Shown here: piece by piece, positions 1,568 through 37,358 of the stretch | How the letters are laid out: each line of letters opens with the position of its first letter | Position numbering within the stretch: position 1 is the first letter of the stretch | Assembly (NCBI GenBank): GCA_003021005.1 | Contig: PXRI01000021.1 | Coordinates: forward strand, 1 to 44,836 | Direction: 5' to 3' | Source: Halobacteriales archaeon QS_1_69_70 | GTDB taxonomy: Archaea; Halobacteriota; Halobacteria; Halobacteriales; Haloarculaceae | Length of the DNA: 44,836 bases | Notes under the pieces: model-generated | Told to the model about the DNA's origin: nothing | Databases searched by the model: none | Seen by the model: only the letters and a program-made list of their open reading frames with translations | Translations under genes and position numbers: made by a program

Positions 1568-3145
1568 ATGAGCAACTGGCTGCGCCGGTCACTCCTCTAC
1601 GTCGGCACGGTGGTCGGCACGATGCTGGCGTTCTCCGTCCCGTACCACTACGGAATGCTCTATCTCGAAGGGGCGGAGGGCCGGCTGTACGTGGAGTCAC
1701 TCCAGCACGTCGTCGAGACGTTCACCGCGACCGGGTACGGGTCCGACTCGCCATGGAACACCGTCACGATGAACCTCTTCGTCATCCTCATGGACGTCGT
1801 CGGCGTCGCGCTCGTCTTCCTCGCGCTCCCGGTCTTCATGTTCCCGCTACTCCAGGAAGCCCTGCAGACGACGATCCCGACGAGTGTCGATGACCTGACC
1901 GACCACGTGGTCATCTGTACGTATTCCTCCCGCGCCGAGGCCCTGATCGGTGAACTGGATTCCCGCGGCGTCCCCTACGTCGTCATGGAACCCGATCGGG
2001 ATCGGGCGCTGGACCTCTACGAGTCCGAGTACTCTGTGATCTACGCCGACCCCGAGTCCGCCGAGGCCCTCCGGGACGCCCGCCTCGAGCACGCCCGGGC
2101 GCTAGTCGCGGACGTCTCCGACGAGGTCGACACCAGCATCGTACTGTCCGCCGGTGAAATCGCCGAGGACGTCACCGTCGTCAGCGTGGTCGAGGAGCCG
2201 AGCCGGGAGCGCTACCATCGGCTGGCCGGCGCGGACGTCGTCTCGCCCCGGCCGCTCCTGGGCCGGAGCCTCGCCTCGAAGGTCACGGGCGCCCTCACGG
2301 CTGAGCTGGACGACGCCGTCGAGATCGGCGAAGACTTCGAGATCGCGGAGCTCGCGGTCCAGCGCGGGAGCCGGCTCGCCGGCGCCACACTCGCCGAGAG
2401 CGGCATCCGGGAGCGGACCGGCGCCAACGTCATCGGCGCCTGGTTCGCGGGCGAGTTCAGGAGTCCGCTGCCGCCCGGGGAGACGCTGACCGACGGGACG
2501 GTACTCCTCGTCTCCGGCGAGCGGGCACAGCTGTCGGAACTCAGGACCCAAACTCGGTCGCCCGTCCGGCGGGTGCAGCCCGGCGAGGTGGTCGTAGTCG
2601 GCTTAGGGGAGGTCGGCCGGGCCGTCGCCGACGTCCTCCGGGGCGCCGACGTCGAGTACACGGTGGTCGACCTCGAGGACGCAGACGGCGTCGACGTGGT
2701 CGGCGACGCGACCGACCCGGCGACCCTCGAGGCGGCCGGCATCGACGAGGCGCGGTCGGCGGTGCTCGCGCTCCCCGACGACACGGTGGCGGAGTTCGCC
2801 ACGCTCGTCATCGACGATCTCGCGCCCGGCGTGGAGGTCGTCGCGCGCGTCGAGAGCGCTGACAGCGTCACCAAGATGTACCGCGCCGGCGCCGACTACG
2901 TCCTGGCGCTGTCGACCATCACCGGGCGGATGCTGGCCTCGGCGCTTTTGGAGGAGCAGGTGCTGACGCCCGACCTCCAGATCGAACTCGTCAGGACGGC
3001 GGCGCCGGCCCTCGACGGCCGGCGACTGGCGGACGCGGACGTCCGCGGGCATCCAGCGGTTCAACGAACTCGCCGGGTAGCCACGGGCGCATGCCGACCG
3101 CTCCGGGGCACGGACCGCTTCACTCGGGGGTCGCGGCCTCCGTGA
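1568..3145 (+). CDS. Two-helix K+ channel with tandem RCK/TrkA domains, C terminus disrupted
   Basis: Starts at ATG 1568. Residues 1-110 form a two-helix ion-channel module: a first helix near 8-28, a pore segment with the potassium selectivity signature TATGYG at 53-58, and a second helix near 66-92. Two RCK units follow. The first begins DHVVICTYSSRAEAL (TrkA_N, about 112-230), followed by a TrkA_C-like part with GSRLAGATLAESGI and LLVSGE. The second begins EVVVVGLGEVGRAV (about 340). RCK domains gate such channels by binding nucleotides or Ca2+. After DADVR (residue 493) the protein turns into an Arg-rich tail to 3145. The +1 frame at 3048-3080 instead reads GIQRFNELAG-stop, the normal end of a TrkA_C domain. 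Roughly 35 codons of the last domain therefore look deleted, with a frame change. Function of the product is doubtful. Confidence 0.85.
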   Translation: MSNWLRRSLLYVGTVVGTMLAFSVPYHYGMLYLEGAEGRLYVESLQHVVETFTATGYGSDSPWNTVTMNLFVILMDVVGVALVFLALPVFMFPLLQEALQTTIPTSVDDLTDHVVICTYSSRAEALIGELDSRGVPYVVMEPDRDRALDLYESEYSVIYADPESAEALRDARLEHARALVADVSDEVDTSIVLSAGEIAEDVTVVSVVEEPSRERYHRLAGADVVSPRPLLGRSLASKVTGALTAELDDAVEIGEDFEIAELAVQRGSRLAGATLAESGIRERTGANVIGAWFAGEFRSPLPPGETLTDGTVLLVSGERAQLSELRTQTRSPVRRVQPGEVVVVGLGEVGRAVADVLRGADVEYTVVDLEDADGVDVVGDATDPATLEAAGIDEARSAVLALPDDTVAEFATLVIDDLAPGVEVVARVESADSVTKMYRAGADYVLALSTITGRMLASALLEEQVLTPDLQIELVRTAAPALDGRRLADADVRGHPAVQRTRRVATGACRPLRGTDRFTRGSRPP

Positions 3146-4364
3146 AGGCCTCGACGTCGACATCCTCGTCGAGCAACCGGTCCGTGCGGTCGGAGACGTC
3201 GACGCCCCGCCGGGCGAGCTTCTTCAGCGCCGACTGCGCCGCGAGATCGCCGATGAGGACCCCGCCGACGACGCGGCCGTCCTTCAGCGTGACGCGGCGC
3301 CAGGTGCCCTCGTCGTAGGTCCGTTCGACGGTCTCGTCGCCGAGCGTCGGGTGGCCGAACGAGAGGAACGGGAACTCGAAGTGCGTGATAGAATAGGAAG
3401 ACACCCACTCGAACTCCTCGGTCTCGCCGCCGGTCGCCATGTTGCGGCCGGCGACCGAGCCTTGTTCCTTTGCGGAGCCCCAGGCGCCGTTCTGGGCGCG
3501 CTCGCCGAGGACGACGTCGTGGAACCGGGTGATGTCGCCGGCGGCGTAGACGTCCTCGACGCTCGTCCGCATGTACTCGTCGACGAGGATGCCGTTGTCG
3601 CACTCGATGGGGGTGTCCTGGATGAACTCCGTGTTGAAGTCCAGGCCGATGGCGACCCCGACGAAGTCGGCCGCGTACCGGTCGCCGTCCGGGTCGACGG
3701 CGGCGGTGACGTGGCCGTCGGCGTCGGTCTCGAAGTGGTCGACGCCGGACCCGAACACCGGCGTGACGCCCTTGTCCCGGAGGGCGTCGTGGATGATCGC
3801 GGCGCCGTCCTCGGAGAGCGCGTACCGCCACCAGGCGTCGCCGCGCATCAGGTAGTGGGCGTCGACGGCCTGGGCGCCACAGATGGCCGCCAGGTCGAGG
3901 CCGAGCAGGCCCGCGCCGACGACGACGCCCGTCTCGGCCTCGGCCGCGGCCGCCTTGATGGCGCGGGCGTCCTCGAACGTCCAGAAGTGGTGGATGCCGT
4001 CGGCGTCGCTGTCGTCGACCGGCAGCTGGGCCGGGGTGCCGCCGGTCGCGAGCAGGAGGCGATCGTAGCCGTAGGTGTCGCCCTCGTGGGTGGATAGTTC
4101 GTGTGCGTCGGTGTCGACGCCCGTCACGACGGTGTTCAACCGGAGGTCGATGTCGCGGTCGGCGTACCAGTCGGGCTCGCGGATGGACACCGGGGCGGCC
4201 GGGAGCTTGCCCTTCGCGAACTCCTTTATGAGGATGCGGTTGTAGAGGGCCTCCCCCTCCTCCGTGATGACGGTGACGTCGGCCTCCGGGTCGGCCTCCC
4301 GCAGCGTCTCCGCCGCGGAGGACCCGGCGATGCCGTCACCGACGATGACGTACGACGCACACAT
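3120..4364 (-). CDS. NAD(P)/FAD-dependent oxidoreductase (NirB/NADH-nitrite reductase-like flavoprotein family)
   Basis: 414 residues, ATG at 4364. The first Rossmann motif is YVIVGDGIAGSSAAETL (FAD), the ATG motif is LLLATGGTP, the second nucleotide site is GVVVGAGLLGLDLA, and the FAD-phosphate contact is VYAAGDITRF. This is the pyridine nucleotide-disulfide oxidoreductase fold without a redox CxxxxC, as in NirB-type or rubredoxin-reductase-like flavoproteins. The partner that receives electrons is not visible nearby. The C-terminal domain (TLKDGRVVGGVLIGD) is typical of that class. It converges with the channel gene upstream. The exact substrate cannot be given. Confidence 0.85.
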   Translation of the reverse strand: MCASYVIVGDGIAGSSAAETLREADPEADVTVITEEGEALYNRILIKEFAKGKLPAAPVSIREPDWYADRDIDLRLNTVVTGVDTDAHELSTHEGDTYGYDRLLLATGGTPAQLPVDDSDADGIHHFWTFEDARAIKAAAAEAETGVVVGAGLLGLDLAAICGAQAVDAHYLMRGDAWWRYALSEDGAAIIHDALRDKGVTPVFGSGVDHFETDADGHVTAAVDPDGDRYAADFVGVAIGLDFNTEFIQDTPIECDNGILVDEYMRTSVEDVYAAGDITRFHDVVLGERAQNGAWGSAKEQGSVAGRNMATGGETEEFEWVSSYSITHFEFPFLSFGHPTLGDETVERTYDEGTWRRVTLKDGRVVGGVLIGDLAAQSALKKLARRGVDVSDRTDRLLDEDVDVEAFTEAATPE

Positions 4365-4512
4365 ATCGCCGGGCTACGAAACCCGGGGTAATGTGAATTG
4401 CTATGTCCCGCGCCGGCGGGCCACCGGCCCGCCCCGGGACCGGATGCGGAGTCGCCGTTCGCCCTCGACCGCCTTCCGTGGGTTGAAGGGTCCGAGGCCC
4501 GGAATCGTGGGC

Positions 4513-5106
4513 ATGAAGATCCGCCAGAACATCCGGCACTGGGCCGCGAAGCAGGCGCTGACCACGCCTGTCCTCGGGGACGTCGCCCGGGAGAAGCTGG
4601 TCGACCTCCACACCCGGATCTTCCTCGAGAAGGCCGACGAGGACCGCCGGCCGGAGCGACGCGACCACCTCGACGACTTCTTCGCGGCGACGATGGACAG
4701 CTACGTCGCCGCCCTGGAGGCCGGTCACACGGAGGCTGAGGCCCGCGAGATTACGCACGTCCAGGCTAACTTCGAGTTCTTCGACAACGGGTGGACGGAG
4801 ATGATGGAGATCCCCGGCGACGAACTCGAGGCCCACTACCGCCGGTACGAGCAGTTCTTCGTCCGGCACGGGATCACCATCGACGACCCGCTCGGCGAGT
4901 TCCACCCGGCCGACGGCATCGCGGACGCGTCCGAGACGCCCGAGAACCTCGCGGAGCCGGAGTACGAGAACGCCATCGCCGGGTTCGCCGACGACGTCTA
5001 CGTTGAGACCGACGATGGCAAGACGCTGGTCGGGGGGACCGAGGAACCCGACACGGTCGACCCGACCGAGGCGCCCGGCCTCGACGAGGACGTCCAGGCG
5101 GACTGA
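4513..5106 (+). CDS. DUF6149-like conserved haloarchaeal protein
   Basis: 197 residues from ATG 4513 (MKIRQNIRHWAAKQALTTP). Helical and acidic: a charged N-terminal half with LHTRIFLEKADEDRRPERRDHL, then an alternation of Glu/Ala and aromatic residues (HVQANFEFFDNGWTEMMEIP) and an acidic low-complexity tail. There is no signal peptide or membrane helix. I recognise this as a haloarchaeal family, probably the one called DUF6149, with no established role. A longer frame opens at 4264, but it runs antisense through the 5' end of the flavoprotein gene, so the internal ATG is chosen. It converges with the amine-oxidase-type gene, 36 bases from its stop. Confidence 0.75.
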   Translation: MKIRQNIRHWAAKQALTTPVLGDVAREKLVDLHTRIFLEKADEDRRPERRDHLDDFFAATMDSYVAALEAGHTEAEAREITHVQANFEFFDNGWTEMMEIPGDELEAHYRRYEQFFVRHGITIDDPLGEFHPADGIADASETPENLAEPEYENAIAGFADDVYVETDDGKTLVGGTEEPDTVDPTEAPGLDEDVQAD

Positions 5107-5142
5107 CCGCGCCGGTCGAACGCCGCGACCCGTCCAGCGTCG

Positions 5143-6480
5143 TCAATCGACCGACGCCAGGAGCGCCTCCGCGGCGTCGTAGCCGGCCTCGATGGCGCCG
5201 TCCAGGCTCCGCTCGGGATACTGCGCCCGGGAGGCCATCCCGGCGTAGGCGACCCCCGGCGCGACCGCGTCGCCGAGGTCCGAGGGGACGACCATCTCCA
5301 GGTAGCCCCGCTCGTAGACCGGCGCGGTCTTCGGGTTTCGCCCGACCCGCACCCGGTTGACGGCGTCGCGGGAGAACTGCGGGAACAGGTCCTCGATCCC
5401 GTCGAGCCACAACGCTTCGACGGCCTCGTCGTCCAGCTGCCACAGCTCCTCGCCGCGGTCCTGGACGTAGCTCGCGACGTACAGCAGGTGTTCGCCGCCG
5501 TACCGCTCCGGGGGCACGAAGTTGGTGTGCTCGATGAGCGCGCCGAACGGGGCGTCGTCGGCGATGTTGAGCCAGTAGGTGTCCAAGAGTGGCTCGTCCA
5601 TCGAGACCACGGCACAGACGGAGCCCTGGAAGTCGATGTCGCAGGTGTAGCCGGTCAGCGAGTCCAGGACGTCCGGCATCGTCGCGACGACCACGCCATC
5701 GACGTCGTGGCTCGTCGCGCCCGCGTCCGGGCGCTCGACGGTGAGCGCCGCGACGCCCGTCCGGCGGTCGTCCGCGGCGCGGTCGAACTCGAGGTCGGTC
5801 ACGCGGGCCTCGGTCACCACGTTCTCCCGACCGACGGCCTCCAGGAGCGCGTCGACGAGGACGCCGAACCCGCCGTCGAGGTAGCCCAGGACTTCGCCCC
5901 GCAGCAGGTCCCGTTCGCCGCGGAACTTGATGCGGCCGAGCAGCCACGCCGCGGAGACCTCGGCCTTGCGGCTCCCGAACTTCGCCTCCAGGAGCGGCTC
6001 GAAGAAGTGCTCGTAGACCCCGCGGGTCGTGTGCTCGAGGAGGAACGCCTCCACGGGGACGTCCTCGAAGGCCTCGATGTCCTCGTAGGTGTCCCGCCGG
6101 GGGACGCCGCCCCGGACGTCGATACCCAGGGTGAGCATCGCCAGCCGGAACGTGTCGTACACCGATAGGTAGGGGTAGGCGGCGATCTCCCAGGGGGTGT
6201 CGAGCGGGTGGGCGACGCCGTCGACGTAGTAGGCGTTCTCGCCGATCCGCCACTCGATGCGGTCGCCGAGCCCGAGTTCGTGGGCCAGCTCGACGATGGT
6301 CTCCTCGGACTTCGAGAGGTGGTGGTAGAACCGCTCGATCCGGTCGCCGCGGGTCTCGTATGTCGCCGCGAGGCCGCCGACACGGGCGTCCGCCTCGAAT
6401 ACGGTCACCTCGTGGCCGGCCTCCTGGAGCCGGTAGGCGGCCGCGAGGCCGGCGAGGCCGCCCCCGACGACGCCGATCAT
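5143..6480 (-). CDS. FAD-dependent amine-oxidase/protoporphyrinogen-oxidase-like protein
   Basis: 445 residues, ATG at 6480. It opens directly with the FAD dinucleotide fold IGVVGGGLAGLAAAYRL, then EVTVFEADARVGGLA, the second fingerprint of the flavin amine oxidase/phytoene desaturase/HemG superfamily. The middle (EHFFEPLLEAKFGSRKAEVSAAW) and the C-terminal FAD-contact region (APGVAYAGMASRAQYPERSL) are complete. Haloarchaea carry several such proteins, and many sit in lipid or polysaccharide loci, but no such neighbours are visible here. The substrate is unknown. A mutated copy of the first 20-odd codons lies on the same strand near 7430-7500. Confidence 0.85.
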   Translation of the reverse strand: MIGVVGGGLAGLAAAYRLQEAGHEVTVFEADARVGGLAATYETRGDRIERFYHHLSKSEETIVELAHELGLGDRIEWRIGENAYYVDGVAHPLDTPWEIAAYPYLSVYDTFRLAMLTLGIDVRGGVPRRDTYEDIEAFEDVPVEAFLLEHTTRGVYEHFFEPLLEAKFGSRKAEVSAAWLLGRIKFRGERDLLRGEVLGYLDGGFGVLVDALLEAVGRENVVTEARVTDLEFDRAADDRRTGVAALTVERPDAGATSHDVDGVVVATMPDVLDSLTGYTCDIDFQGSVCAVVSMDEPLLDTYWLNIADDAPFGALIEHTNFVPPERYGGEHLLYVASYVQDRGEELWQLDDEAVEALWLDGIEDLFPQFSRDAVNRVRVGRNPKTAPVYERGYLEMVVPSDLGDAVAPGVAYAGMASRAQYPERSLDGAIEAGYDAAEALLASVD

Positions 6481-6524
6481 ACCGGCGGGTCAGCCGCGCG
6501 AGGGATGGGCCTTTCGGGTCCGTG

Positions 6525-7337
6525 TCAGTCAGGAGTGGGCCGCCGTCTCCCGCCCGGGGGCTCGGTCGTCGACCCGTCTCGTGGATACAGCGTCCAGCAC
6601 GCCCAAAACGTCAGGACGGCGGCGAGGGCCGGAGGCGTACCGAGCCAGAACGAGTCGGTCAGGAACCCGAGGACGGCGACGAAGACACAGACCAGCGCGA
6701 GCGGGAGCACGTACCAATGGGCAGCGTCCGGACGGCGCGCCGTCGTGGCGGCCAGCAGTCCGGCGAGCGCGAGCGCATAGAGGCCGAGCGCGAAGAATAC
6801 CGGCGGCGACCCAATGACGCTCGGCTCCATCGACGAACCACCCCGAAGACTGGGTGTGAACACGGTCACCCCGAGGATCGTCGCCAGGGTCCCGACCAGC
6901 AACCAGGCGTGGGACCGCGACAGCGGCCCGAGGACGGTTGCGAGGATTCCGAGGCTAAAACCGAGGACGCTGAACCCGGCCAGCAGCCACCACGCGCCCA
7001 AAAGCGTGGTCTCGGGAGCCTCGCCGAACGCCCAGGCGGCGGCGGGGGCCATTGCCAGGCCACCGGCGGCCGACCCGGTCTCCAGCAGCCGACGACCCCA
7101 CGGCGGGAGGTCGGCCAGCGCGACGAGACCGGCCAGGAGCGCGGCCTCGGTGAACACGACGAAACTCATCGCGAGGAACAATAGCGCGAGGATTGCTCCG
7201 AATGCGACCCCGATGTGGTCGTACTGCGCGCTCGCGGCAGAGACCTCTTCGTAGAGGGCGTGATGCGCCGCGTACCCGACGACCGCGAGGAGCGCCGTTC
7301 CACCGGCGACGAGACACGAACGCACGTCGGGTTCCAT
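6525..7337 (-). CDS. Multi-spanning membrane protein, unknown
   Basis: 270 residues from ATG 7337 (MEPDVRSC). About eight hydrophobic segments can be drawn, among them VAFGAILALLFLAMSFVVF, LLAGFSVLGFSLGILATVLG and YVLPLALVCVFVAVLGFL, with short loops and a Pro/Arg-rich cytoplasmic tail. No transporter or enzyme motif is seen. The frame stays open to 7430, but the added 31 residues are Arg/Lys/Asn-rich and overlap a relic region, so the internal ATG is preferred. It runs in the same direction as the FAD oxidoreductase 44 bases further on and could be cotranscribed with it. Confidence 0.7.
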   Translation of the reverse strand: MEPDVRSCLVAGGTALLAVVGYAAHHALYEEVSAASAQYDHIGVAFGAILALLFLAMSFVVFTEAALLAGLVALADLPPWGRRLLETGSAAGGLAMAPAAAWAFGEAPETTLLGAWWLLAGFSVLGFSLGILATVLGPLSRSHAWLLVGTLATILGVTVFTPSLRGGSSMEPSVIGSPPVFFALGLYALALAGLLAATTARRPDAAHWYVLPLALVCVFVAVLGFLTDSFWLGTPPALAAVLTFWACWTLYPRDGSTTEPPGGRRRPTPD

Positions 7338-7429
7338 ATCGAATCGGACCGACTGACTCAGGATAAGTTTTCTCCTGTTCGTCTTGGTTTTATTCCTAAG
7401 TCGATTCGACCTCGCGGTCGTTCGCCTCA

Positions 7430-7500
7430 ACCTGTCACCCTGCTGGAGGCGGTAGGCGGCGGCCAGCCCTGTGAGTCCGTCCGACTACGATACCGATTAT
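7430..7500 (-). pseudogene. Relic of the 5' end of an FAD oxidoreductase gene
   Basis: Read on the minus strand from 7500, the codons give ATA (mutated start) then IGIVV. After a one-base frame change they give DGLTGLAAAYRLQQGD. This matches the start of the intact gene at 6480 (IGVVGGGLAGLAAAYRL) over roughly 65 bases. The rest of the gene is absent, so it is a decayed fragment of a paralogue or duplication in the 270-base spacer before thrB. Confidence 0.6.
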
Positions 7501-7604
7501 CTGAGATAGTCAATCCCGGACGAAAAGAGACTGTCGGGGGCGGAGGCCGCCCGACGGTCGCTGGGAGCGGGGTCGCTACCTTTTTGCCCGCCGTCCCGGA
7601 ATCC

Positions 7605-7610
7605 GGAGGT
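7605..7610 (+). promoter_or_regulatory. Purine-rich site GGAGGT directly before thrB start
   Basis: GGAGGT abuts the ATG at 7611 with no spacer, so it is a poor Shine-Dalgarno site by position. The box CTTTTTGCC around 7580-7588 lies about 27 bases upstream of the ATG and fits a leaderless promoter. The purine run may therefore be incidental. Confidence 0.35.
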
Positions 7611-8486
7611 ATGCTCACCGTCCGGGCCCCCGCGACGAGTGCGAACCTCGGCAGCGGATTCGACGTCTTCGGGGCGGCCCTGGCGCGGCCCGCCGACGTC
7701 GTCCGGCTCCGGCGGGCCGACCGGACCGACATCGAGGTGACGGGCGCCGGGAGCCAGTACATCCCGGAGGACCCCGAGGACAACACCGTCGGCGCCGTCG
7801 CGGAGGCGCTTTCCGCCCCCGCCCACATCCAGATCGACAAGGGCGTCCGGCCCGCCTCCGGGCTGGGCTCCTCGGCGGCCTCCGCCGCGGCGGCCGCCGT
7901 CGGCCTGAACGAACTATACGGCCGCGGCCACACCCGGGCGGAACTCGTCCCGATCGCCGCGGAGGGCGAGGCCGTCGTCTCCGGGGACGCCCACGCGGAC
8001 AACGTCGCGCCGTCGATCCTCGGTGGGTTCACCGTCGCCCGCGAGGACGGCGTCGAACGGATCGACGCCTCGATCCCGCTCGTGACCTGCCTGCCGGACA
8101 TCGTCGTCTCGACGAGCGACGCCCGCGAGGTCGTCCCCGACGGCGCCACCATGGACCAGCTCGTCGACGTGGTCGGGAGCGCGGCGGCACTGACGGTCGG
8201 GATGGCGCGCGATGATCCTGCCCTCGTCGGCGCCGGGATGGAGGACGGCGTCGTCACGCCGGCTCGGGCCGACCTCATCACCGGCTACGGCCCCGTCCGG
8301 GAGGCCGCCTTCGACGCCGGCGCGACCGGCGTCACCATCTCCGGCGCCGGCCCGGCGGTGATCGCCGCCTGCCGGGAGCGGGACCGTCGCGACGTCGCCG
8401 CCGCGATGGTCGAGGCCTTCGAGGCCGCCGAGGTCGACGCCCGGGCCCACCAGACCCGGATCGGCGAGGGCGCGACGATACACTGA
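7611..8486 (+). CDS. thrB: Homoserine kinase
   Basis: 291 residues from ATG 7611. GHMP-kinase family: N-terminal MLTVRAPATSANLGSGFD, the ATP-binding loop PASGLGSSAASAAAAAVG at about 81-98, and the C-terminal ISGAGPAVIA (residues 244-253) that closes the active site. The enzyme phosphorylates L-homoserine with ATP, the step before threonine synthase in threonine synthesis, and works in the cytosol. The length is normal for the family. The frame extends upstream to 7215, but that part overlaps the divergent membrane-protein promoter and the relic, and the ATG with its adjacent GGAGGT is the clear start. A fragment of the window's GC-rich repeat family follows the stop directly. Confidence 0.93.
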   Translation: MLTVRAPATSANLGSGFDVFGAALARPADVVRLRRADRTDIEVTGAGSQYIPEDPEDNTVGAVAEALSAPAHIQIDKGVRPASGLGSSAASAAAAAVGLNELYGRGHTRAELVPIAAEGEAVVSGDAHADNVAPSILGGFTVAREDGVERIDASIPLVTCLPDIVVSTSDAREVVPDGATMDQLVDVVGSAAALTVGMARDDPALVGAGMEDGVVTPARADLITGYGPVREAAFDAGATGVTISGAGPAVIAACRERDRRDVAAAMVEAFEAAEVDARAHQTRIGEGATIH

Positions 8487-8580
8487 CCGCGAGGCCGACC
8501 GCAGGGAGGCCTCGGAACGAGCGAGCGGGAGGAGCGACCAGCGGGAGCGACGACACGCGAGCCGCGAACCGGGCGTCTAC
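8487..8580 (+). repeat. Short member of the GC-rich mosaic repeat family (island A)
   Basis: Immediately after the thrB stop the sequence GACCGCAGGGAGGCCTCGG, AACGAGCGAGCGGGAGG and GACGACACGCGAGCCGCGA appears. The same strings recur in the long island near 41.4-41.7 kb in the same orientation and, reverse-complemented, near 25.7-25.9 kb. The remaining 180 bases before fumC hold no gene; a TTTTACC box at about 8728-8735 lies 25-30 bases before the fumC ATG. Confidence 0.7.
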
Positions 8581-10168: not shown

Positions 10169-10192
10169 CCGGCGGTCGTCGATCGCACGGAT

Positions 10193-10306: not shown

Positions 10307-10352
10307 CGGCCGACGGCGCGGCCGTCCGGCCGCCGCCCGCCGCCGCTTCACT

Positions 10353-10427: not shown

Positions 10428-10436
10428 CGTGTAGTC

Positions 10437-24575: not shown

Positions 24576-25195
24576 ATGGACGGGCGGGCACTCGAAGAGG
24601 TCGCTGGCGCCATCCGGGACGCCGGCTCGGTCGTCGCCCTGACGGGCGCCGGTGTCTCGACCGCCTCGGGCATCCCCGACTTCCGTTCAGCGGACGGTAT
24701 TTGGTCCGAGTATGACCCCCAGGCGTTCCATATCTCGCGGTTCCGCCGGGACTCGACGGCCTCCACCAGGACGCCGGCAGCGAGGACCCCGTCGAGATCC
24801 ACGGCAACGGTCGACGGGTCGCCTGTACCGGGTGTAGCCGCCGGTCCGACGCCGACCCGGTGTTCGCGCGGGCCCGGGGTGGCGAGGTGCCGCCGACCTG
24901 CGACGAGTGCGGCGACGTCCTGAAGCCCGACGACGTTCTCTTCGGCGAGCAGTTGCCCGAGCACGCGCTGTTCCGTGCGCAGGCGCTGTCGGAATCGGCC
25001 GACGCCTACCTCGTCGTCGGCTCCTCGCTGTCGGTCGAACCGGCCGCGTCGCTGCCCCGGACCGCCGCCGAGCGCGGCGCGACCCTCGTCGTGGTCAACC
25101 TCGAGGACACCCCGCTGTCGAACCGCGCGGAGTACGACTTCCGCGCCGACGTCACCGAGGCGTTACCGCTCCTGGCCGACGCCGTGGTATCGTAG
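24576..25195 (+). pseudogene. Sir2-type NAD-dependent protein deacylase, internal deletion and frame change
   Basis: The 5' part (ATG 24576) encodes VVALTGAGVSTASGIPDFRS, the NAD-binding site, to HISRFRRD at 24752. From 24755 the +2 frame continues DGLHQDAGSEDPVEIHGN (catalytic His in IHG), the zinc ribbon cysteines (CTGC...CDEC), KPDDVLFGEQLP, VVGSSLSVEPA and a normal end at 25195. The intervening segment expected in Sir2 proteins (about 40 residues including the QN of the QN-x-D motif) is missing and the frames do not match. Each half is otherwise pristine. If real, the gene is dead or makes a truncated protein; if an artefact, the gene is an ordinary sirtuin acting on lysine acyl groups. 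Confidence 0.85.
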
Positions 25196-26139: not shown

Positions 26140-26140
26140 C

Positions 26141-29910: not shown

Positions 29911-30805
29911 CACCGGCCCCGACCATGTCGACGAGGGCCCGGCGCTTCAACAGTGCGAACCCGAGGAAGACGACGACGAACCCGACGAGCGAGAGGATAC
30001 CGACCCTCTCGCCGAGGACGGCGACGCCGACCACGGTCGCGACCACCGGCACCAGGTAGGCGACGAGGCTCGCCTCGAAGGCGCCACGGTCGTGCAGGAT
30101 GGTGAAGTAGATGATGAACGCGAGCGCGGTCGAGAACACCCCGAGATAGGCGACGACGCCGACGGCGGCGGGCTCGGCGGCTCTCGCCGGAACGGGTTCA
30201 CCGGCGGCGAGACTGAGCAGGTGCAACACCAGGCCGCCGACCAGCATGGCCCACCCGGTCATCGGGACGCGCTCCATCGACGGGCGGGCGCGGTCGACGA
30301 GCACGCTGCCGAGCGAGACGCTTGCCACCTGCCCGAGGATGATCAGCCGGCCGGCCGTGTCACCGGCCAGCAGGCTGTCGGGGTTCGGCTGGACGACGAG
30401 CGCGATCCCGAGAAAGCCCAGGGCAACGCCGACGCTTCCGACCCCCGAGAGGCGCTCGCCGAGGAGCCCCAGCGCCCACAGCGCCGTCGCGATCGGCACC
30501 ATCGCCTGGAGGATCGCGGCGACGCCGCTCGGGACGGTCTGCTGGCCGATGAAGAGCAGTCCGTTCCCCGCGACCAGGAACAAGCCCCCGAAGACGATCG
30601 CGTGTCTGTCGTTCCGACCGACGGGCCGCCAGCCATCGGTCGAGACGGCGGCGTACCCCAACAGGAGTACCGCGGCGGTGTCGTACCGAAACGCCGCGAA
30701 CAACAGCGGCGGGATGTACTCGAGGCCGACGGAGATCGCGGGAAACGACAGCCCCCACATCGTCGCCAGCGTGACGAACAGGGCGGTCGCGTACCACCGG
30801 GACAC
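29903..30805 (-). CDS. EamA-family (drug/metabolite) transporter
   Basis: 300 residues with GTG at 30805 (VSRWYATALFVTLATMWG). Ten hydrophobic segments arranged as two EamA repeats of five: the first includes FVTLATMWGLSFPAISVGL and GLFLVAGNGLLFIGQQT, the second LIILGQVASVSLGSVLVDRA and FIIYFTILHDRGAF. The typical end VGFVVVFLGFALLKRR is complete. Such proteins export small metabolites or amino acids by secondary transport. The frame is open to 30970, but the extra N-terminal part is Arg/Pro-rich and not membrane-like. The 260 bases upstream hold no gene. Confidence 0.87.
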   Translation of the reverse strand: MSRWYATALFVTLATMWGLSFPAISVGLEYIPPLLFAAFRYDTAAVLLLGYAAVSTDGWRPVGRNDRHAIVFGGLFLVAGNGLLFIGQQTVPSGVAAILQAMVPIATALWALGLLGERLSGVGSVGVALGFLGIALVVQPNPDSLLAGDTAGRLIILGQVASVSLGSVLVDRARPSMERVPMTGWAMLVGGLVLHLLSLAAGEPVPARAAEPAAVGVVAYLGVFSTALAFIIYFTILHDRGAFEASLVAYLVPVVATVVGVAVLGERVGILSLVGFVVVFLGFALLKRRALVDMVGAGVS

Positions 30806-31065
30806 GGTGGGTGGTCTCGCGGCCGCGTGAAATCCCTGCCGTTTGCGGCGGCGACGGGGGCCGGCCAGCGCTGCCCGGCGCGTCCGGAGTGGCGAACAGG
30901 CGACCCGTTCGTCGTGAACGCCGGCCCGTGGGTCGCACACCCGCCTCGGCGGCCCGGCGCGGACGGTCACCGCACGGGCCGTCTGGTCCCCTCTCGGTAT
31001 CTAAATCCTCGGGTAACCTGCCACGACCGGTGTCGGTCGGAGATCCGGCCGTCCGCCCCGTTGCG

Positions 31066-32662
31066 TCAGTCGTGGATGAGGACGTCGATGACATCGGTGC
31101 CGCCGGTCTCGAGCGCGGTCTCGTACACTTCGGGGAACTCCGCAGTGGTTTCGACGAGGTGGCCGCGAGCTCCGTGGCTCTCGACGTTCCGCGGGATGTC
31201 GACGTGCGGGTCGAAGTCCATCCCGACGAAGTCGTAGTCCGCTTCCTCGCCGCCCATCATCTCGAGGGTGTTGTCCTTGAGGATGCGGTAGTTGCGGTTG
31301 TCGGGGACGACGACCGTCAGGTCGACGGCCTGGCGGACGGCCGAGTAGATGGCGTGGGGGTAGTAGAGGTAGGAGCCGTCGCCGATGTACCCCACGACGG
31401 TACGGGGGTTGTCACGGAGGGATTCGGCGATGGCGGCGCCGACGGCGGCCGGCAGGCCGTAGCCGAGGCCGCCGCCCTTGTTCGACAGCAACTGTTCGGC
31501 CCCGAACGGGAACCGGGTGAGCAGCGCGAACTTTGCGGTGACGCCCTCGTCGACGATGTACGTGTCGGAATCGACGGCCTTCATGTGGTCCACGAGTTCG
31601 GCCTTCGACGAGCGGGTGTCGCCGTCCGGCTTCTCGTCCTCCCCCATCTCCGTCATCGTGGCCTCGAGGCCGGTCTTCATCGTCTGAACGTACTGGATCC
31701 GTTCATCGCGCTCGGCGTCGTCGAGGCGGTCCTCGACGCGGTCGGCGAGTGTCCTCGGAGACGAGCGGGTTCTCGTGGCGGAGCAGCGTGGTGTTCGTCG
31801 AGCAGCCGACCAGCGCGAGCGTGTCGGTGTCCATCAGCATCGAGGCGACGTCCTCGTCGGGCCCGACGAAGGAGATCCACTGCTCGTGGTCGGTCGGGAA
31901 GTTGATCTCGCAGGCGAGGATCTCGCCGTGGACGCGGGCGCCGCAGGCCTCGGCGAGGCGGACGGCGGCGTCGACGGCGTCGGTCCCGGCGCGAGCGACG
32001 TGGTCGCCGACGACGAGTACCGGCTGGTCGGCCTCGACGAGGTAGTCGGCAGCCGTCTCGATGTTCTCCGGGTCGCCGCCGCCGGCATCGGGGATCGGGC
32101 CGAGCCGCTGTGGGTCCGCGTCGGTCTCGGACTGCATGACGTCAACGGGGAACGAGAGGAACACGGGACCGGTCGGTGGCGTCAGCGCCACCCGGACGGC
32201 CCGCCGGAGCAGCATCGGGAGGGCGTCGACGTCCGTGACCTCGGCCGAGAACTTGCAGAACTGCGAGACCAGCTCCTCCAGGTCGCCGGTCAACAGCGGC
32301 TCCTCGTGGCGGAAGTCGAGTTCGTGGTTGCCGGCGGTGACGAGCACCGGCGCGCCGCCGTACATCGCGCCGAAGACGTTCCCGAGCCCGTGGGCGAGGC
32401 CGGGCGTGATGTGGAGGTTGACCACCCCTAGCGGGCACACCGACGGGTCGCCGTCCGTGTGGTATCGCCGCGTGGAGGCGTAGCCGGCGGCCATCCCGGT
32501 GGCGACGTCCTCCTGGAGGCCGAGGACGTACTCGACGTCGCCGTCGCCGAGCGCCTCCATGATCGGGAGTTCGGTCGTGCCGGGGTTGCCGAAGACGTGT
32601 TCGACCCCGTACTGCTCGAGGGCGTCCACGAACAGGTCCGCGCCCGTGTAGGCGTCAGGCAT
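31066..32662 (-). pseudogene. TPP-dependent enzyme (benzoylformate decarboxylase/acetolactate synthase-like), internal deletion and frame change
   Basis: N-terminal part from ATG 32662: VDALEQYGVEHVFGNPGTTELPIMEAL with the cofactor Glu region, EDVATGMAAGYA, VVNLHITPGLAHGLGN and PTGPVFLSFPVDVM, up to HENPLVSEDT near 31748. From 31749 the other frame continues LADRVEDRLDD, then EGVTAKFALL, GGGLGYGLPAAVGAAIAE and the TPP-Mg motif GDGSYLYYPHAIYSA...DNRNYR to TGA/TAA at 31066. About 30 residues expected between the central and the TPP-binding domain are missing with loss of frame. Otherwise both parts are intact. An upstream in-frame ATG at 32698 exists, but the TATA box lies between the two ATGs, so 32662 is the likely start. 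The substrate is a 2-keto acid, unspecified. Confidence 0.85.
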
Positions 32663-32684
32663 GGGTTCCACTGCCGGTGGCGCC

Positions 32685-32692
32685 GATAAATA
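32685..32692 (-). promoter_or_regulatory. TATA box of the TPP-enzyme gene
   Basis: Minus-strand TATTTATC centred 26 bases before the ATG at 32662, the classic haloarchaeal leaderless spacing. It decides the start against the ATG at 32698. Confidence 0.7.
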
Positions 32693-32752
32693 GTTCATCC
32701 CTCCGCCGTCGACGGGCGGACGTCCGCCACGGTCGGGGCACCGCCGGACCGG

Positions 32753-33754
32753 TCAGTCGGGCGAAAGCGCCCGCATCGTCGACTCGATGGCCTCGAGGTC
32801 GGCGGACCTGGGGAACGACACCGAGATGGCCTCGACGCCGTCGATGTCAGTGAACCGCCTGAAGCGCTCGCCGGCGGACTCCGGCGTGCCCCAGACGGCG
32901 AGCTGTTCGAGGAGGTCGTCGGGAACTGCGGCCATCGCGGCCTCGCGGTCGCCGGCCTGCCAGTTGTCGTAGACGGCGTTGGCGACGTCAGCGTGACCCT
33001 GGCGGGCGAGGTTGTCGCGGTAGTATGTCCCCATCCCGCCGACGTAGAAGGCGGCGTGTTGCTTCACGAGCCGCTTCGCCTCGTCGGGGTCCTCGAGGGC
33101 AGCGCATGTGAGCGAGAGCGTGACGCACTGCTCGTCGCGGTCGCGGTCGCCGAGGTCGGCGCCGCGTTCGAAGTCCGCCAGCCGGTCCCGGAGGCCGTCC
33201 CGGGTCAGCATCAGGGCGTGCCAGCCGTCGCCGAACCGGCCGGCGAGTTCGACCGCCTTCGGGCCCATGCCGGCGGTCTCGATCGGCGGGACGGGCTCGG
33301 GCGGGTCACAGCGGAGCCGGAACCCCTCGAGGTCGAAGTACTCGCCGTGGTACTCGACGGGGTCGCCGGTCAGGACCTGCTTGACGATCTCGACGGTCTC
33401 GCGGGTGCGCCGGAGCGGGTTGTCGAAGTCGGCGCCGTGCCAGTTCTCGATGACGATGGGACCGGAGGGCCCGAGGCCGAGCCGGAACCGGCCGTCGGCG
33501 ACCTCCTGGAGGGTCGCGGCGGTCTGGCCAAGGAGGGCTGGCGACCGGGAGTACACCGGCACGATGGAGGTGCCGACGTCGATGGTGTCGGTGGCGTGTG
33601 CGATGCTCGTGAGCGTCGTGACGGCGTCCCGGCCCCACGTCTCGGGGAGCCAGGCGGTGTCGTAGCCGAGGTCCTCGCCGAGGCGGGCCTGCTCGACCAG
33701 TGCGTCCACGCTCGGCTGGGCGGAGACCGGCAGGAACACGTCGCGTTCGGTCAC
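32753..33754 (-). CDS. LLM-class flavin/F420-dependent oxidoreductase (NP1902A-type)
   Basis: 333 residues, ATG 33754. Luciferase-like TIM barrel: FLPVSAQPSVDALVEQARL, EDLGYDTAWLPETWGRDAVT, IDVGTSIVPVYSRSPALLGQTAATLQEV, GRFRLGLGPSGP and PPIETAGMGPKAVELAGRFGDGWH. I recognise the haloarchaeal F420-dependent NP1902A group (TIGR04024, from memory). These enzymes carry hydride transfer with reduced F420 or FMN on unknown substrates. It begins 22 bases after the stop of the SDR gene in the same direction, so the two form an operon; both could act on one hydroxy/keto substrate. Confidence 0.87.
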   Translation of the reverse strand: MTERDVFLPVSAQPSVDALVEQARLGEDLGYDTAWLPETWGRDAVTTLTSIAHATDTIDVGTSIVPVYSRSPALLGQTAATLQEVADGRFRLGLGPSGPIVIENWHGADFDNPLRRTRETVEIVKQVLTGDPVEYHGEYFDLEGFRLRCDPPEPVPPIETAGMGPKAVELAGRFGDGWHALMLTRDGLRDRLADFERGADLGDRDRDEQCVTLSLTCAALEDPDEAKRLVKQHAAFYVGGMGTYYRDNLARQGHADVANAVYDNWQAGDREAAMAAVPDDLLEQLAVWGTPESAGERFRRFTDIDGVEAISVSFPRSADLEAIESTMRALSPD

Positions 33755-33776
33755 CGGTTGGGCCTCCGGTTGGCGG

Positions 33777-34553
33777 TCATACGTTCGGGGACTCCTCGAT
33801 GTCGGGCAGTCCCTTCGCCGTGATGGTCTCCCCGACCATGTAGGAGGACGCGTCGCTGGCGAGGAACTGGACGATGTCGGCGATCTCCTCGGAGAGCCCC
33901 ATCCGTCGCTTCACCTCGCTCCGGTCGACGTCGCCGGCGTCGATCCCCATCTGGGAGGCGACACCGGGGGTGGCGACGAAGCCGGGCGCGATGCAGTTGA
34001 CGCGGATGCCGTGGTCGGCGTACTCGTAGGCCAGCGTGGTGGTGAGGTTGACCACGCCGGCCTTCGCGGCGCCGTAGTGGCTCATGTACGGGGAACCCTG
34101 GGTGCCGGCGACCGACGCGAAGTTGATGATGGTGCCGCCGTCGGCGTCCTGCATCCGCTTTCCGGCGACCTGCGAGCAGTGGAAGGTGCCGTGGAGGTTG
34201 ATATCGACGATGGTCTTCCAGCCGTTCTCCGAAAGGTCGTCGAAGCCGACCATGAACGAGGCGCCGGCATTGTTGATCATCGAGTCCAGGCCGCCGAACG
34301 TCTCGACGGTCGCCTCGACCAGCGCCTCGACGGCGTCCCGGTCCCGGACGTCGCACTCGACGGCGATGGCCTCGCCGGGACGGTCGCTGTCGTTGATCTC
34401 GTCGGCGACAGCCTCGATCTGCTCCTGGGAGCGGGAGGTGACGACGACGTCGGCGCCCTCGTCGGCGAACCGCTTTGCGGTCACCTCCCCGATGCCCTGG
34501 CTGGAGCCGGTGATGATGGCGGTCTGGCCTGCGACGCTGAACTGGTCTAGCAC
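33777..34553 (-). CDS. Short-chain dehydrogenase/reductase
   Basis: 258 residues, ATG 34553. Classical SDR: cofactor loop TGSSQGIG at 15-22, NNAG at 94-97, catalytic Ser147 (FASVAG), Tyr160 and Lys164 (YGAAK), the PG motif IAPGFVATPG, and the C-terminal FLASDASSYMVGETITAKG. The Asp/Arg pattern after beta2 (TSRSQEQ) suggests NADP(H). Complete and of normal length. It reduces a ketone or oxidises an alcohol, unspecified. It is the first gene of a two-gene unit with the F420/LLM oxidoreductase. The 174 bases to the divergent MBL gene hold the two promoters, including GTAAATAAAGG around 34624-34634. Confidence 0.9.
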   Translation of the reverse strand: MLDQFSVAGQTAIITGSSQGIGEVTAKRFADEGADVVVTSRSQEQIEAVADEINDSDRPGEAIAVECDVRDRDAVEALVEATVETFGGLDSMINNAGASFMVGFDDLSENGWKTIVDINLHGTFHCSQVAGKRMQDADGGTIINFASVAGTQGSPYMSHYGAAKAGVVNLTTTLAYEYADHGIRVNCIAPGFVATPGVASQMGIDAGDVDRSEVKRRMGLSEEIADIVQFLASDASSYMVGETITAKGLPDIEESPNV

Positions 34554-34727
34554 CGCCGATCACCCGCCGTGACGGCGCCCGTGGCTCTCCGGGTCATAGA
34601 ACGTCTCGAACCTCCGTCCGGGCGTAAATAAAGGTAAGTCCCCCCACGAACGAAGTGAACGATGGAAAGTCAGCGAGGGATGACCTGAAACGAACTCTTA
34701 TGGTTTGCGGCGGCGTGTTTCCGGCTG

Positions 34728-35690
34728 ATGGACCCCCGGGGCACGGCGCAGGACGTCCACCGGTTGACCTTCGACATCGACTGGCCGCCAGGCACCGTCG
34801 CCTGCTATCTCATCGACGGGCGGGAGACGGTCCTGGTCGACGCCGTCACGCCCGACCACGGGACGGCGTTCGGAGAGCGGCTCGCGGCCCACGACCTCGC
34901 CCCGGCCGACGTCGACCACGTCCTGGTCACGCATCCCCACGTCGACCATATCGGCCAGGTCCCGACCGTGGTCACCGCCGGGGAGCCGATGGTGTACGCA
35001 CCCGCCGGCGTCCGCGAACGGTTCGCCCGTGACACGGCCGAGCTGGCGGCCAGCGTGCGCCGCAACGCCACCGAGGCCGGGTTCCCCGAAGACTGGCAGG
35101 AGATGGCCGTCGACATGGCGGTGGAGTCCCTCGAACGGAACAGCGACCTGCTCGCGCCCGACGCCGTGGACGTCTGGATAGAGCCGGGCGACACCACCGC
35201 CGTCGGCCCCATCGAGGTCGGGGCCGTCCACGTCCCGGGCCACCAAGCCGACCACCTCGCCTACCAGGTCGAGATCGGCGGCGAGTCCGCGCTCTTCGCC
35301 GGCGATATGGCCATCGAGCCGTTGCGGTCGGTCAGCCTCCACGACGGCCTGGACGATGGCCATCGCGAGGCCGTGGACGCCTTCTACGCGGCCCTCGACC
35401 GACTGGCCGCCCTGGAGGTCGACCGCGTCTACCCCGGCCACGGGCCCGTCCACCGGGACCTCCAGGGCGTCGTCAGACGGGACCGCCAGAGCCTCGACGC
35501 CCGCCTCGACGCCGTCCGCGACCTCGTCGCCTACGGGCAAGAGACGGCCGCGGAGGTCGCGTTCGCTCTGGCCGGCGACCGCGACGTCAGGTACCTCATC
35601 CCGGAGACGATGGCGGCGCTGGCACACCTCGAATCGACCGGCGCGGTGTCGGTCGAGCTGGTCGACGGCGTGCGGCGATACAATGCATGA
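34728..35690 (+). CDS. Metallo-beta-lactamase-fold hydrolase
   Basis: 320 residues, ATG 34728, 26 bases after CTCTTATGG (leaderless). The di-metal site HPHVDHIG (69-76) is followed by VPGHQADHLAYQV, LFAGDMAI and VYPGHGPVH, giving the His/Asp ligands of glyoxalase-II-like enzymes. The C-terminal 60 residues (ETAAEVAFALAGDRDVRYLIPETMAALAHLESTGAV) form the winged-helix-like LACTB2 tail. It probably hydrolyses a thioester or phosphodiester. Its stop overlaps the next start by four bases (ATGA). Confidence 0.88.
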   Translation: MDPRGTAQDVHRLTFDIDWPPGTVACYLIDGRETVLVDAVTPDHGTAFGERLAAHDLAPADVDHVLVTHPHVDHIGQVPTVVTAGEPMVYAPAGVRERFARDTAELAASVRRNATEAGFPEDWQEMAVDMAVESLERNSDLLAPDAVDVWIEPGDTTAVGPIEVGAVHVPGHQADHLAYQVEIGGESALFAGDMAIEPLRSVSLHDGLDDGHREAVDAFYAALDRLAALEVDRVYPGHGPVHRDLQGVVRRDRQSLDARLDAVRDLVAYGQETAAEVAFALAGDRDVRYLIPETMAALAHLESTGAVSVELVDGVRRYNA

Positions 35691-36379
35691 GCGGCCCGAC
35701 GCGCCGCTACGAGGCGGTGTTCTGGGACGTCGGCGGCGTGCTCGTCGACCTCCGGTCCGTGCGGGCGGGCTACGCCGCCTTCGTCGCCGAACTGGCCGAC
35801 GACCACGACCTGGCGCCCGAGGAGGCCATAGAGCGCTGGCGGACCCGCCTCGGCGAGTACTTCCGCAGCCGGGAGGGCACCGAGTTTCGGCCCGCCCGGG
35901 AGGGCTACCGGCGGGCCACCGCGGCGCTCTTCGATGGCGACCCGCCCGCCGGCTGGGAGGCGACGTTCGACCGGGCGAGTAGCGCGGCGCTCCGGGCCGA
36001 GCCCGGCGCCGTCGAGACGGTCGAGACGCTCGCCGCCGCCGGGGTGACCCAGGCCATCGTCTCCGACATCGACACCCGCGAGGCCGAGTCGATGCTCGAG
36101 TCCTTCGGCATCCGGGACCGCTTCGACCACGTCACGACCTCCGAGGCCGTCGGCCACACCAAGCCGGACGAGCGCATGTTCCGGCACGCCCTCGCGGGGA
36201 CGGGCGTCGACCCCGAGGATGCGCTGATGGTCGGGGACCGCTACGAGCACGACGTCGAGGGCGCGGCCGCCGTCGGCCTCGCGGCGGCGGGCTACGGCGA
36301 GGACGCCTGGGGGCCGGCGGCGACCCACGAGCTGGCGTCCCTCCGGGAGCTGCCGGCCGTTGTCGGCATCCGGGACTGA
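35687..36379 (+). CDS. HAD-superfamily hydrolase
   Basis: 230 residues, ATG 35687 overlapping the MBL stop. HAD motifs: I FWDVGGVLVD with the nucleophile Asp14, where the usual DxD second Asp is Gly (DVG), which is common in dehalogenase/epoxide-hydrolase-like subgroups; II AIVSDIDT; III HTKPDERMF; IV MVGDRYEHDVEGAAAVG. The cap domain lies between residues 20 and 105. It may hydrolyse phosphate or halo esters. The missing second Asp makes a plain phosphatase less certain. Cotranslation with the MBL protein suggests a two-step reaction. A perfect 14-base palindrome lies 57 bases after its stop. Confidence 0.87.
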   Translation: MSGPTRRYEAVFWDVGGVLVDLRSVRAGYAAFVAELADDHDLAPEEAIERWRTRLGEYFRSREGTEFRPAREGYRRATAALFDGDPPAGWEATFDRASSAALRAEPGAVETVETLAAAGVTQAIVSDIDTREAESMLESFGIRDRFDHVTTSEAVGHTKPDERMFRHALAGTGVDPEDALMVGDRYEHDVEGAAAVGLAAAGYGEDAWGPAATHELASLRELPAVVGIRD

Positions 36380-36435
36380 GTACCGGGCCCGGTCGACGGG
36401 TGTCCAGCCCGGAGGAACGAGGATGTCCGGGGCTG

Positions 36436-36449
36436 CCGGCTGCAGCCGG
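36436..36449 (+). terminator. Palindrome followed by T-rich stretch after the HAD gene
   Basis: CCGGCTGCAGCCGG, a perfect 14-base palindrome, followed by TTTGTGTGTATT. It may end the MBL-HAD transcript, although archaeal terminators often need only the T-run. Confidence 0.45.
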
Positions 36450-36499
36450 TTTGTGTGTATTAGGGACGATTGGAGTGTGGGTCACCGGGCCTGCCGGCT

Positions 36500-36582
36500 G
36501 GGGGCGGGTCTGGGGGTCTTTGGGGGTGATGGCTCCGACTGATCGGTGGGACCGGGATGGATGGTCCCGGTCGGCCGGGACC
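36500..36582 (+). promoter_or_regulatory. G-quadruplex-type motif and two competing hairpins
   Basis: Four G-runs at 36500-36526 (G5, C, G3, TCT, G5, TCTTT, G5) meet the canonical quadruplex pattern. Right after, GACCGGGA (36550-36557) pairs with TCCCGGTC (36565-36572). The overlapping GGTCCCGG (36563-36570) pairs instead with CCGGGACC (36575-36582) over a TCGG loop. The two 8-bp stems exclude each other. The region is upstream of the TATA box CTTATCC (36628-36634) of the next SDR, so it is outside that gene's leaderless mRNA. Confidence 0.5.
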
Positions 36583-36660
36583 GCCACCGCGGCCGTCCAG
36601 CACCCGCCTCGCATCGCCGGCGGAATCCTTATCCTGTAACCTGCGGATAGCCGTCTTGCA

Positions 36661-37358
36661 ATGGACTTCGGACTCGACGACAAGACCGCGCTCGTGACGG
36701 GCGGGGCCGGACGCATCGGGAGCGAGGACTGCCGCGTGCTCGCCCGGGAGGGCGCGGAGGTCGTCATCGCGACCTCACCGATCGCGACGACGTCGCCGAC
36801 ACCGTCGCCGCACTCGAGGCGGAGACCGGCGGCATCGACGTCCTCGTGAACAACGCCGGGATGGTCGACGCCCGCGACAGGGTCGAGGACTTCGACGACG
36901 ACATCTGGGATCGGGACGTCTCAGTGAACCTCACCGGCGCCTACAACGTCACCCGCGAGGTCTACCCCGAGATGAAATCGCGGGAGTGGGGCCGCATCAT
37001 CAGCATGTCCTCGATGGCAGGCTGGCAGGGCGGCTTCGGTCAGCTGTCGTACTCGGCGACGAAGGCCGCGCTCATCGGGTTCGGCAAGACCCTCGCGCTC
37101 GAGGGCGCCCAGCACGGCGTCACCTCCAACGTCATCGCGCCCAGCATCGTGGTCGGCCAGCTCGCCGAGCTGCCCATCGACCAGCTCGAGCAGGTCGACG
37201 AGCACTTCGCCCGCATCGCGAAGGTCACGCCGATGCGGCAGCTCGGCACGGAGACCGACGTCGCCACCCTCGTCGCCTTCCTCGCCAGCGAACAGTCCAG
37301 CTACATCACCGGACAGGTCGTCGGCGTCACCGGCGGCATCGACCTGTTCACTTTCTAG
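36661..37358 (+). pseudogene. Short-chain dehydrogenase/reductase, internal deletion and frame change
   Basis: From ATG 36661: DDKTALVTGGAGRIG (cofactor loop) and CRVLAREGAEVVI up to about 36769. From 36771 the +2 frame continues DLTDRDDVADTVAALEAETGG, IDVLVNNAG, the catalytic SMAGW...YSATK region, NVIAPSIV and the normal end QSSYITGQVVGVTGGIDLFTF. The expected 20-25 residues of strand 3 are missing with loss of frame. The gene is otherwise complete and follows CTTATCC by about 30 bases. The junction lies inside a perfect inverted repeat, GAGGTCG (36757-36763) with CGACCTC (36770-36776). Translation from the ATG would stop within 63 codons. Confidence 0.85.

What the first reader, a model, noticed from the sequence alone, without database searches (positions are those of the whole stretch)
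1568..37358. Recurrent short internal losses with frame change in four unrelated genes
The TrkA-like (near 3046), Sir2 (near 24753), TPP enzyme (near 31750) and SDR (near 36770) genes each have two pristine halves in different frames, with roughly 20-45 expected conserved residues missing between them. There are no other lesions, which is not how ordinary pseudogenes look. In-frame losses would be invisible here, so the true number may be higher (for out-of-frame losses, expect about one in-frame for every two seen). In two of the four the junction lies inside a perfect 7-bp-stem inverted repeat (3034-3047; 36757-36776), and in the other two inside 4-bp ones, which is weak in GC-rich DNA. Either this is a genome-wide deletion process tied to secondary structure, or a systematic assembly/amplification artefact.
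Basis: partly seen in the sequence, partly recalled or inferred. Interest (0 to 1): 0.75.

Follow-up and report, generated by a model that had tools for sequence, protein, structure and literature searches.

The report
Silent scaffold-join deletions in draft genome
Four broken genes in this salt-loving archaeon's draft genome most likely lost about 100 letters each when assembly software joined pieces without marking the gap, so this is a data error and not a new biological deletion process.

Summary
Relatives that have both flanks keep the segments.

The cause is most likely assembly. In 174 kb aligned between the window's MAG (G000) and G014 I found 30 clean losses of 40-400 bp: 16 in G000 and 14 in G014, at unrelated sites. 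Of these, 26 are 66-142 bp long. They are frame-blind (13 of 30 divisible by three) and show no excess of inverted repeats. Eleven control pairs (157.6 kb) gave one such loss: 66 bp, in frame, at an 8-bp repeat. Five well-anchored N gaps in these MAGs and a third are too short by 63-149 bp, the same size as the losses. That suggests a scaffolder that underestimates gaps by about 100 bp and omits the Ns when the estimate is zero or below.

Short deletions in IDBA-UD assemblies are already reported (PMC4384745), and the study of the relatives used IDBA_UD (PMC5532433). Reads could not be mapped, G000's assembler is not known, and other MAGs of that study show few such losses.

The parts
1568..3080 (+). 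TrkA-like gene (TrkA_N and TrkA_C domains), broken at 3046|3047 by a 116-bp loss 11 codons before its end
   Evidence: Pfam PF02254 and PF02080 on the intact G014 copy
3046..3047 (.). Junction 1: 116 bp missing against G014, 1-bp ambiguity. The 7-bp palindrome 3034-3047 lies almost wholly in the left flank
24576..25195 (+). Sir2-family NAD-dependent deacylase gene, broken at 24752|24753
   Evidence: PF02146 and NCBIfam CobB-type models on the intact G014 copy
24752..24753 (.). Junction 2: 136 bp missing, no microhomology
31066..32698 (-). Thiamine-pyrophosphate enzyme gene (acetolactate synthase / benzoylformate decarboxylase type), broken at 31748|31749
   Evidence: PF02776, PF00205 and PF02775 on the intact G014 copy
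31748..31749 (.). Junction 3: 98 bp missing, no microhomology
36661..37358 (+). Short-chain dehydrogenase/reductase (SDR) gene, broken at 36768|36769
   Evidence: PF00106 and PF13561 on the intact G007 copy and on the window's second half
36768..36769 (.). Junction 4: 82 bp missing, no microhomology. The arms of the 7-bp stem 36757-36776 lie on opposite sides of the join
44836..44836 (.). Window ends exactly at a 189-N gap (G000:C21:44837-45025), showing that the contig is a scaffold

Best explanation
The four broken genes are local assembly errors. Shown: each lacks 82-136 bp that relatives keep, and the same kind of loss is spread over the sampled parts of the MAG (about one per 11 kb) and over the sister MAG G014. 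Inferred: short-read contigs stopped at a poorly covered spot, paired reads linked them, and the scaffolder's gap estimate was too small by roughly 100 bp. When the estimate stayed positive a too-short N run was written. When it was zero or negative the contigs were joined with no N, apparently with trimming, so that about 100 bp vanished whatever the true gap. The organism's genes are then expected to be intact.
For: (1) In 174,217 aligned bp G000 x G014 there are 30 clean losses of 40-400 bp, 16 in G000 and 14 in G014; 26 of 30 are 66-142 bp, median 102.5 (SDR added by hand at 82 bp). The 25 of these 26 measured by script have 0-3 bp of microhomology, while the two shorter ones (45 and 50 bp) have 6 and 16 bp. 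(2) Frame-blind: 13 of 30 divisible by three, P = 0.25 against one third. Of 47 losses of 20-400 bp, 16 could be called coding, 6 in-frame and 10 shifting, 11 with the SDR re-measured. (3) Controls: 11 pairs (10 of named isolates, plus the unnamed near-complete genomes G018/G016), 157,602 aligned bp, one loss passing the same fit filter: 66 bp, in frame, 8-bp microhomology. A protein-level scan found no frameshifting loss of 15 bp or more in about 355 kb of coding-like isolate sequence (only two 1-bp shifts and two apparent gains), against 3 in 13.6 kb of the window. (4) Sites in G000 and G014 do not coincide (median nearest distance 5.8 kb, 6.2 kb by chance). (5) N gaps with flush flanks in unique sequence are too short by 63, 97, 113, 149 and 148 bp (where G014 and the single-contig G018 both give 292 bp for 144 N). 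(6) Core genes are hit: in-frame losses inside FtsZ (G014) and succinate-CoA ligase beta (G000), and losses in PolX in both MAGs at different places. [quoted passage not shown] PMC7111523 (passages): local assembly errors suspected to be particularly prominent in IDBA-UD. PMC5532433 (passages): the Sw/Qh/Qs study used 100-bp paired reads and IDBA_UD; no local-error curation appears in the passages shown.
Against: No reads could be mapped. Other MAGs judged by name to be of the same study show few such losses: 0 in 54.8 kb over seven loci in the protein-level scan, one of them a piece of G014, and one 49-bp loss in G011 against G013, plus losses of about 830 bp (G011) and 61 bp (G013) seen against the window. 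The rate must vary between MAGs, perhaps with coverage. Outside 40-400 bp there are eight more good-fit differences: 23, 27, 33, 37 and 38 bp, all missing in G014, and 495, 1458 and 1575 bp, so the size band is strong but not exclusive (26 of 38 overall). The N-gap link rests on 5 of the 22 N runs in the G000, G014 and G011 stretches. Others disagree or are unusable: L132 -96 against G014 (flanks share a repeat), L229 and L153 about -179 (duplicated flanks), L200 -36 to -39 (127 bases unaligned), L193 about +23 (repeat), L148 about +253 (32 bases unaligned), L158 +622 (unaligned). The trimming step was not checked against IDBA-UD's code.
Confidence: 0.93

Rival explanations
1. A real genome-wide deletion process in this archaeal lineage removes about 100-bp segments, blind to reading frame.
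For: Losses are frequent, mostly blunt, of a narrow size and found in two related MAGs at similar rates.
Against: No stem enrichment, control genomes lack it, frame-blind losses reach core genes, N-gap deficits have the same size, and few such losses appear in G011 and G013 of the same genus.
Confidence: 0.03
2. Library amplification (13 PCR cycles in the study of the relatives) deleted hairpin-prone segments before sequencing, and the assembler reported the deleted molecules faithfully.
For: PCR enrichment is described for the related MAGs (passage) and the DNA is GC-rich.
Against: Lost segments are not significantly more GC-rich or structured than random ones (GC 0.713 vs 0.696, P = 0.10; folding energy P = 0.16) and sites differ between the two MAGs. 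A deleted molecule would have to be the majority at each site.
Confidence: 0.02
3. The four genes are ordinary decaying pseudogenes with deletions at short direct repeats.
For: A few surveyed losses have long direct repeats (16 bp at L138, 23 bp at L135) and may be true slippage deletions.
Against: The four junctions have 0-1 bp of microhomology, no other lesion is seen, and they fall in the same size band as losses in many unrelated genes.
Confidence: 0.02

Closest known systems
Short deletions in IDBA-UD assemblies (Raveh-Sadka et al. 2015, PMC4384745, passages seen; author name recalled)
   Same: Short sequence losses in a metagenomic assembly
   Different: That work found them by read mapping; here they are inferred by comparison with relatives, with a size band near 100 bp and a link to N-gap underestimates
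Local assembly errors and unneeded N gaps over overlapping flanks (PMC7111523, Genome Res. 2020, passages seen)
   Same: Both kinds seem present: losses without N, and N runs whose flanks are near-copies (L229:2878-2957, L153:9141-9198)
   Different: The paper's test is absence of any perfectly matching read, which could not be applied here

Membership tests
IDBA-UD-type local assembly error (N-free join with loss) | No read supports the junction perfectly | not testable with these tools
IDBA-UD-type local assembly error (N-free join with loss) | Relatives keep the missing segment in one open frame | tested here: met
   Among loci with both flanks: SDR 69 of 71, TPP 16 of 17, Sir2 3 of 4, failures being the window or its copy; TrkA in G014, G011 and G007 by alignment
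IDBA-UD-type local assembly error (N-free join with loss) | Assembly made with IDBA-UD | tested here: inconclusive
   G000 is unnamed. QH/QS names fit the Sw/Qh/Qs study that used IDBA_UD. G000 has N runs of varied length
IDBA-UD-type local assembly error (N-free join with loss) | Frame-blind and unrelated to gene function | tested here: met
   13 of 30 divisible by three, P = 0.25; several unrelated genes
Secondary-structure-driven deletion | Inverted repeats enriched at junctions | tested here: not met
   Mean longest stem 3.90 vs 3.98 at random sites, P = 0.70, 29 losses; stems of 7 bp or more in 3% vs 2%
Slippage deletion between direct repeats | Direct repeats at the junctions | tested here: not met
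   0-1 bp at the four junctions (SDR). In the survey 32 of 38 have 0-1 bp; the mean of 1.68 vs 0.89 by chance is raised by cases of 6, 16 and 23 bp, which may be true slippage

The most novel reading that the evidence does not exclude
A lineage-specific deletion activity that cuts out segments of about 100 bp regardless of frame, active in this species and its sister but not in the isolates compared.
Probability: 0.03. Interest if true: 0.85.

Novelty: not a real feature. Interest (0 to 1): 0.12.

Why it matters
At the sampled rate (16 in 174 kb) the 2.45-Mb MAG would carry about 225 silent losses, so gene-loss, pseudogene or frameshift claims from such MAGs need read support. The 66-142 bp band next to N-gap deficits of 63-149 bp is a read-free warning sign that could be looked for in other archived scaffolds. 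The effect itself is already reported for IDBA-UD.

Tried and rejected
Stem or hairpin cause: tested on 29 losses, no enrichment. Unusual GC or folding of the lost segments: not significant. Shared hot spots between G000 and G014: none. Microhomology as a general cause: 32 of 38 losses have 0-1 bp. Reading the intergenic differences at window 25190 (495 bp) and 31030 (243 bp) as the same kind of loss was rejected: they contain multi-copy short repeats present in G014. One protein-level test was useless for TrkA because its tail is too short. The N gaps in L216 and L207 could not be placed; the 4-N gap in L208 lies in a repeat and was not resolved. The search (a 20-kb stretch of G000) was used for orientation only and enters no count.

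Rows dropped before counts: one search listed 89 length differences of 12 bp or more; one search kept 52 (20-1600 bp, at most 9 extra or 70 overlapping bases, no N within 30 bases), 38 of them 40-400 bp; 29 of these had a junction fit of at least 0.9. The SDR loss was mis-sized by blastn as 84 bp with a poor fit and added at its aligned size of 82 bp. Control pairs passed the same length and fit filters, but with an alignment identity floor of 74% instead of 84%. Their stretches all come from the SDR neighbourhood, three pairs are combinations of the same three Natrialba strains, and 5 of 11 are more diverged (78-83%) than G000 and G014.
Full report
What is there. The window is the first 44,836 bases of scaffold C21 (95,273 bp) of a haloarchaeal MAG, G000: 2.45 Mb, 44 contigs, 82% complete. 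It ends exactly at a run of 189 N. Over the window its aligned pieces are about 88-97% identical.

The four breaks. Aligned to G014 and other relatives, the losses are 116 bp at 3046|3047 (TrkA-like), 136 bp at 24752|24753 (Sir2), 98 bp at 31748|31749 (TPP enzyme) and 82 bp at 36768|36769 (SDR) (families). All shift the frame, none has more than 1 bp of microhomology, and no other lesion is seen in the halves. At the protein level, among loci with both flanks, the SDR reads through in 69 of 71, TPP in 16 of 17 and Sir2 in 3 of 4; every failure is the window or its duplicate fetch L001. TrkA could not be scored that way; G014, G011 and G007 keep its segment in the alignment. Two relatives are broken in these genes by other losses: G011 in TPP (about 830 bp) and G013 in Sir2 (61 bp).

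Is the window special? No. I took stretches of up to 20 kb of G000 (746,696 bases with the window) and G014 (645,980 bases), of which 174,217 bases of G000 align. With one set of filters (given under Tried and rejected) there are 30 clean losses of 40-400 bp, 16 in G000 and 14 in G014. The window holds 4 of the 16 in 36.9 of the 174 kb. Of the 30, 26 are 66-142 bp, with a median of 102.5 over all 30. The two below 66 bp (45 and 50) have 6 and 16 bp of microhomology and may be true slippage deletions; the 25 script-measured losses of 66-142 bp have 0-3 bp. Outside 40-400 bp there are eight more good-fit differences (23-38 bp, five, all missing in G014; 495, 1458 and 1575 bp), so the band holds 26 of 38 overall. 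Thirteen of the 30 are divisible by three (P = 0.25 against one third). Where codon-position mismatches allowed a coding call (16 of 47 losses of 20-400 bp), 6 are in frame and 10 shift it, 11 when the SDR loss is re-measured from 84 to 82 bp and counted as coding.

What the losses do not show. Inverted repeats at the junction are no longer than at random sites (3.90 vs 3.98, P = 0.70, 29 losses). Stems of 7 bp or more occur at 3% of them against 2%, and adding the SDR gives 2 of 30. The lost segments are not significantly richer in GC (0.713 vs 0.696, P = 0.10) or more structured (P = 0.16). The arms of the SDR stem lie on either side of the join, and the TrkA palindrome lies almost wholly in the left flank. 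Loss sites in the two MAGs are placed independently. A sequence-driven process is hard to fit to this.

Controls. Eleven pairs (ten of named isolates, three of them combinations of three Natrialba strains, and the unnamed near-complete genomes G018 and G016; 157,602 aligned bp around the SDR gene) gave three differences of 40 bp or more, of which one passed the fit filter: 66 bp, in frame, with 8 bp of microhomology. A protein-level scan found no frameshifting loss of 15 bp or more in about 355 kb of coding-like isolate sequence (two 1-bp shifts and two apparent gains were listed) and none in 62 kb of other MAGs, against 3 in 13.6 kb of the window. The same scan found none in 54.8 kb of seven loci judged by name to be of the study of the relatives, one of which (L051) is a piece of G014. 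By design it skips large losses, and it did not list G014's loss near the end of the F420-oxidoreductase gene. Pairwise comparison did show one 49-bp loss in G011, and the G011 and G013 losses named above. The error rate therefore varies between MAGs; coverage is the likely reason but was not measurable here.

How it most likely arose. The same assemblies contain N runs of varied length: 6 in the G000, 15 in the G014 and 1 in the G011 stretches. Five whose flanks align flush (within 2 bases) to relatives in unique sequence are too short by 63, 97, 113 and 149 bp and 148 bp (G014 and the single-contig G018 agree on 292 bp for 144 N). This matches the size of the N-free losses. If the gap estimate is low by a roughly constant 100 bp, and a zero or negative estimate leads to a join with trimming, the net loss equals that bias whatever the true gap, which would explain the size band. 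This step is inferred. Only 5 of 22 N runs were usable. L132 (-96), L200 (about -37), L229 and L153 (about -179), L193 (about +23), L148 (about +253) and L158 (+622) do not fit or cannot be judged because of repeats, duplicated flanks or unaligned bases.

Biological plausibility. The genes hit include ones that a living population would hardly lose piecemeal: FtsZ (75 bp in frame, G014), succinate-CoA ligase beta (72 bp in frame, inside the ATP-grasp domain, G000) and PolX, with separate losses in both MAGs. For in-frame cases the direction (loss, not gain) rests on the family match alone. That such genes matter to the cell is general knowledge, not tested here.

What is known. PMC4384745 (eLife 2015, passages) states that short deletions are common in IDBA-UD assemblies. 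PMC7111523 (Genome Res. 2020, passages) suspects local assembly errors to be particularly prominent in IDBA-UD and describes N gaps over overlapping flanks, of which L229 and L153 look like cases. PMC5532433 (Front. Microbiol. 2017, passages) describes 100-bp paired reads, 600-1000 bp libraries and IDBA_UD for the Sw/Qh/Qs salt crusts. That G000 belongs to that study is an inference. Three literature searches (listings only, apart from the papers named) showed me no description of a constant gap bias; this is a limited search.

Verdict. A real pattern in the data, almost certainly an assembly artefact of a kind already reported, and not a biological feature. Confidence 0.93, interest 0.12.

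Noticed in passing
window 37359-40343: About 3 kb between the SDR gene and a DUF502 gene is absent in four relatives (G007, G011, G013, G016), which run from one almost straight to the other. It holds two ORFs (38173-38913, 39427-39921) without Pfam matches and copies of short multi-copy repeats.
   Followed up: partly
window 25190 and 31025-31034; L100:6985-7487 and L100:12885-13145: Intergenic length differences (495 bp with an 8-bp direct-repeat tie, and 243 bp) contain short repeats found in 7 and 8 of 79 G000/G014 stretches, which look like small repeat elements present in G014 and absent here.
   Followed up: partly
L229:2878-2957 and L153:9141-9198: N runs whose two flanks are near-copies of each other (98 bp at 99%, about 100 bp at 84%), as if Ns had been placed between overlapping contigs or inside a tandem repeat.
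   Followed up: partly
L032 (QS_4_69_225), around 6792-6799: The TPP-enzyme gene of this MAG lacks about 830 bp relative to window 31626-32448, with about 8 bp of overlap at the join, a separate loss in the same gene.
   Followed up: no
L152:9548-11518 (G014): A single 656-aa ORF matches succinate-CoA ligase beta (N-terminal part only) followed by alpha, a fusion perhaps created by G014's own sequence losses there.
   Followed up: no
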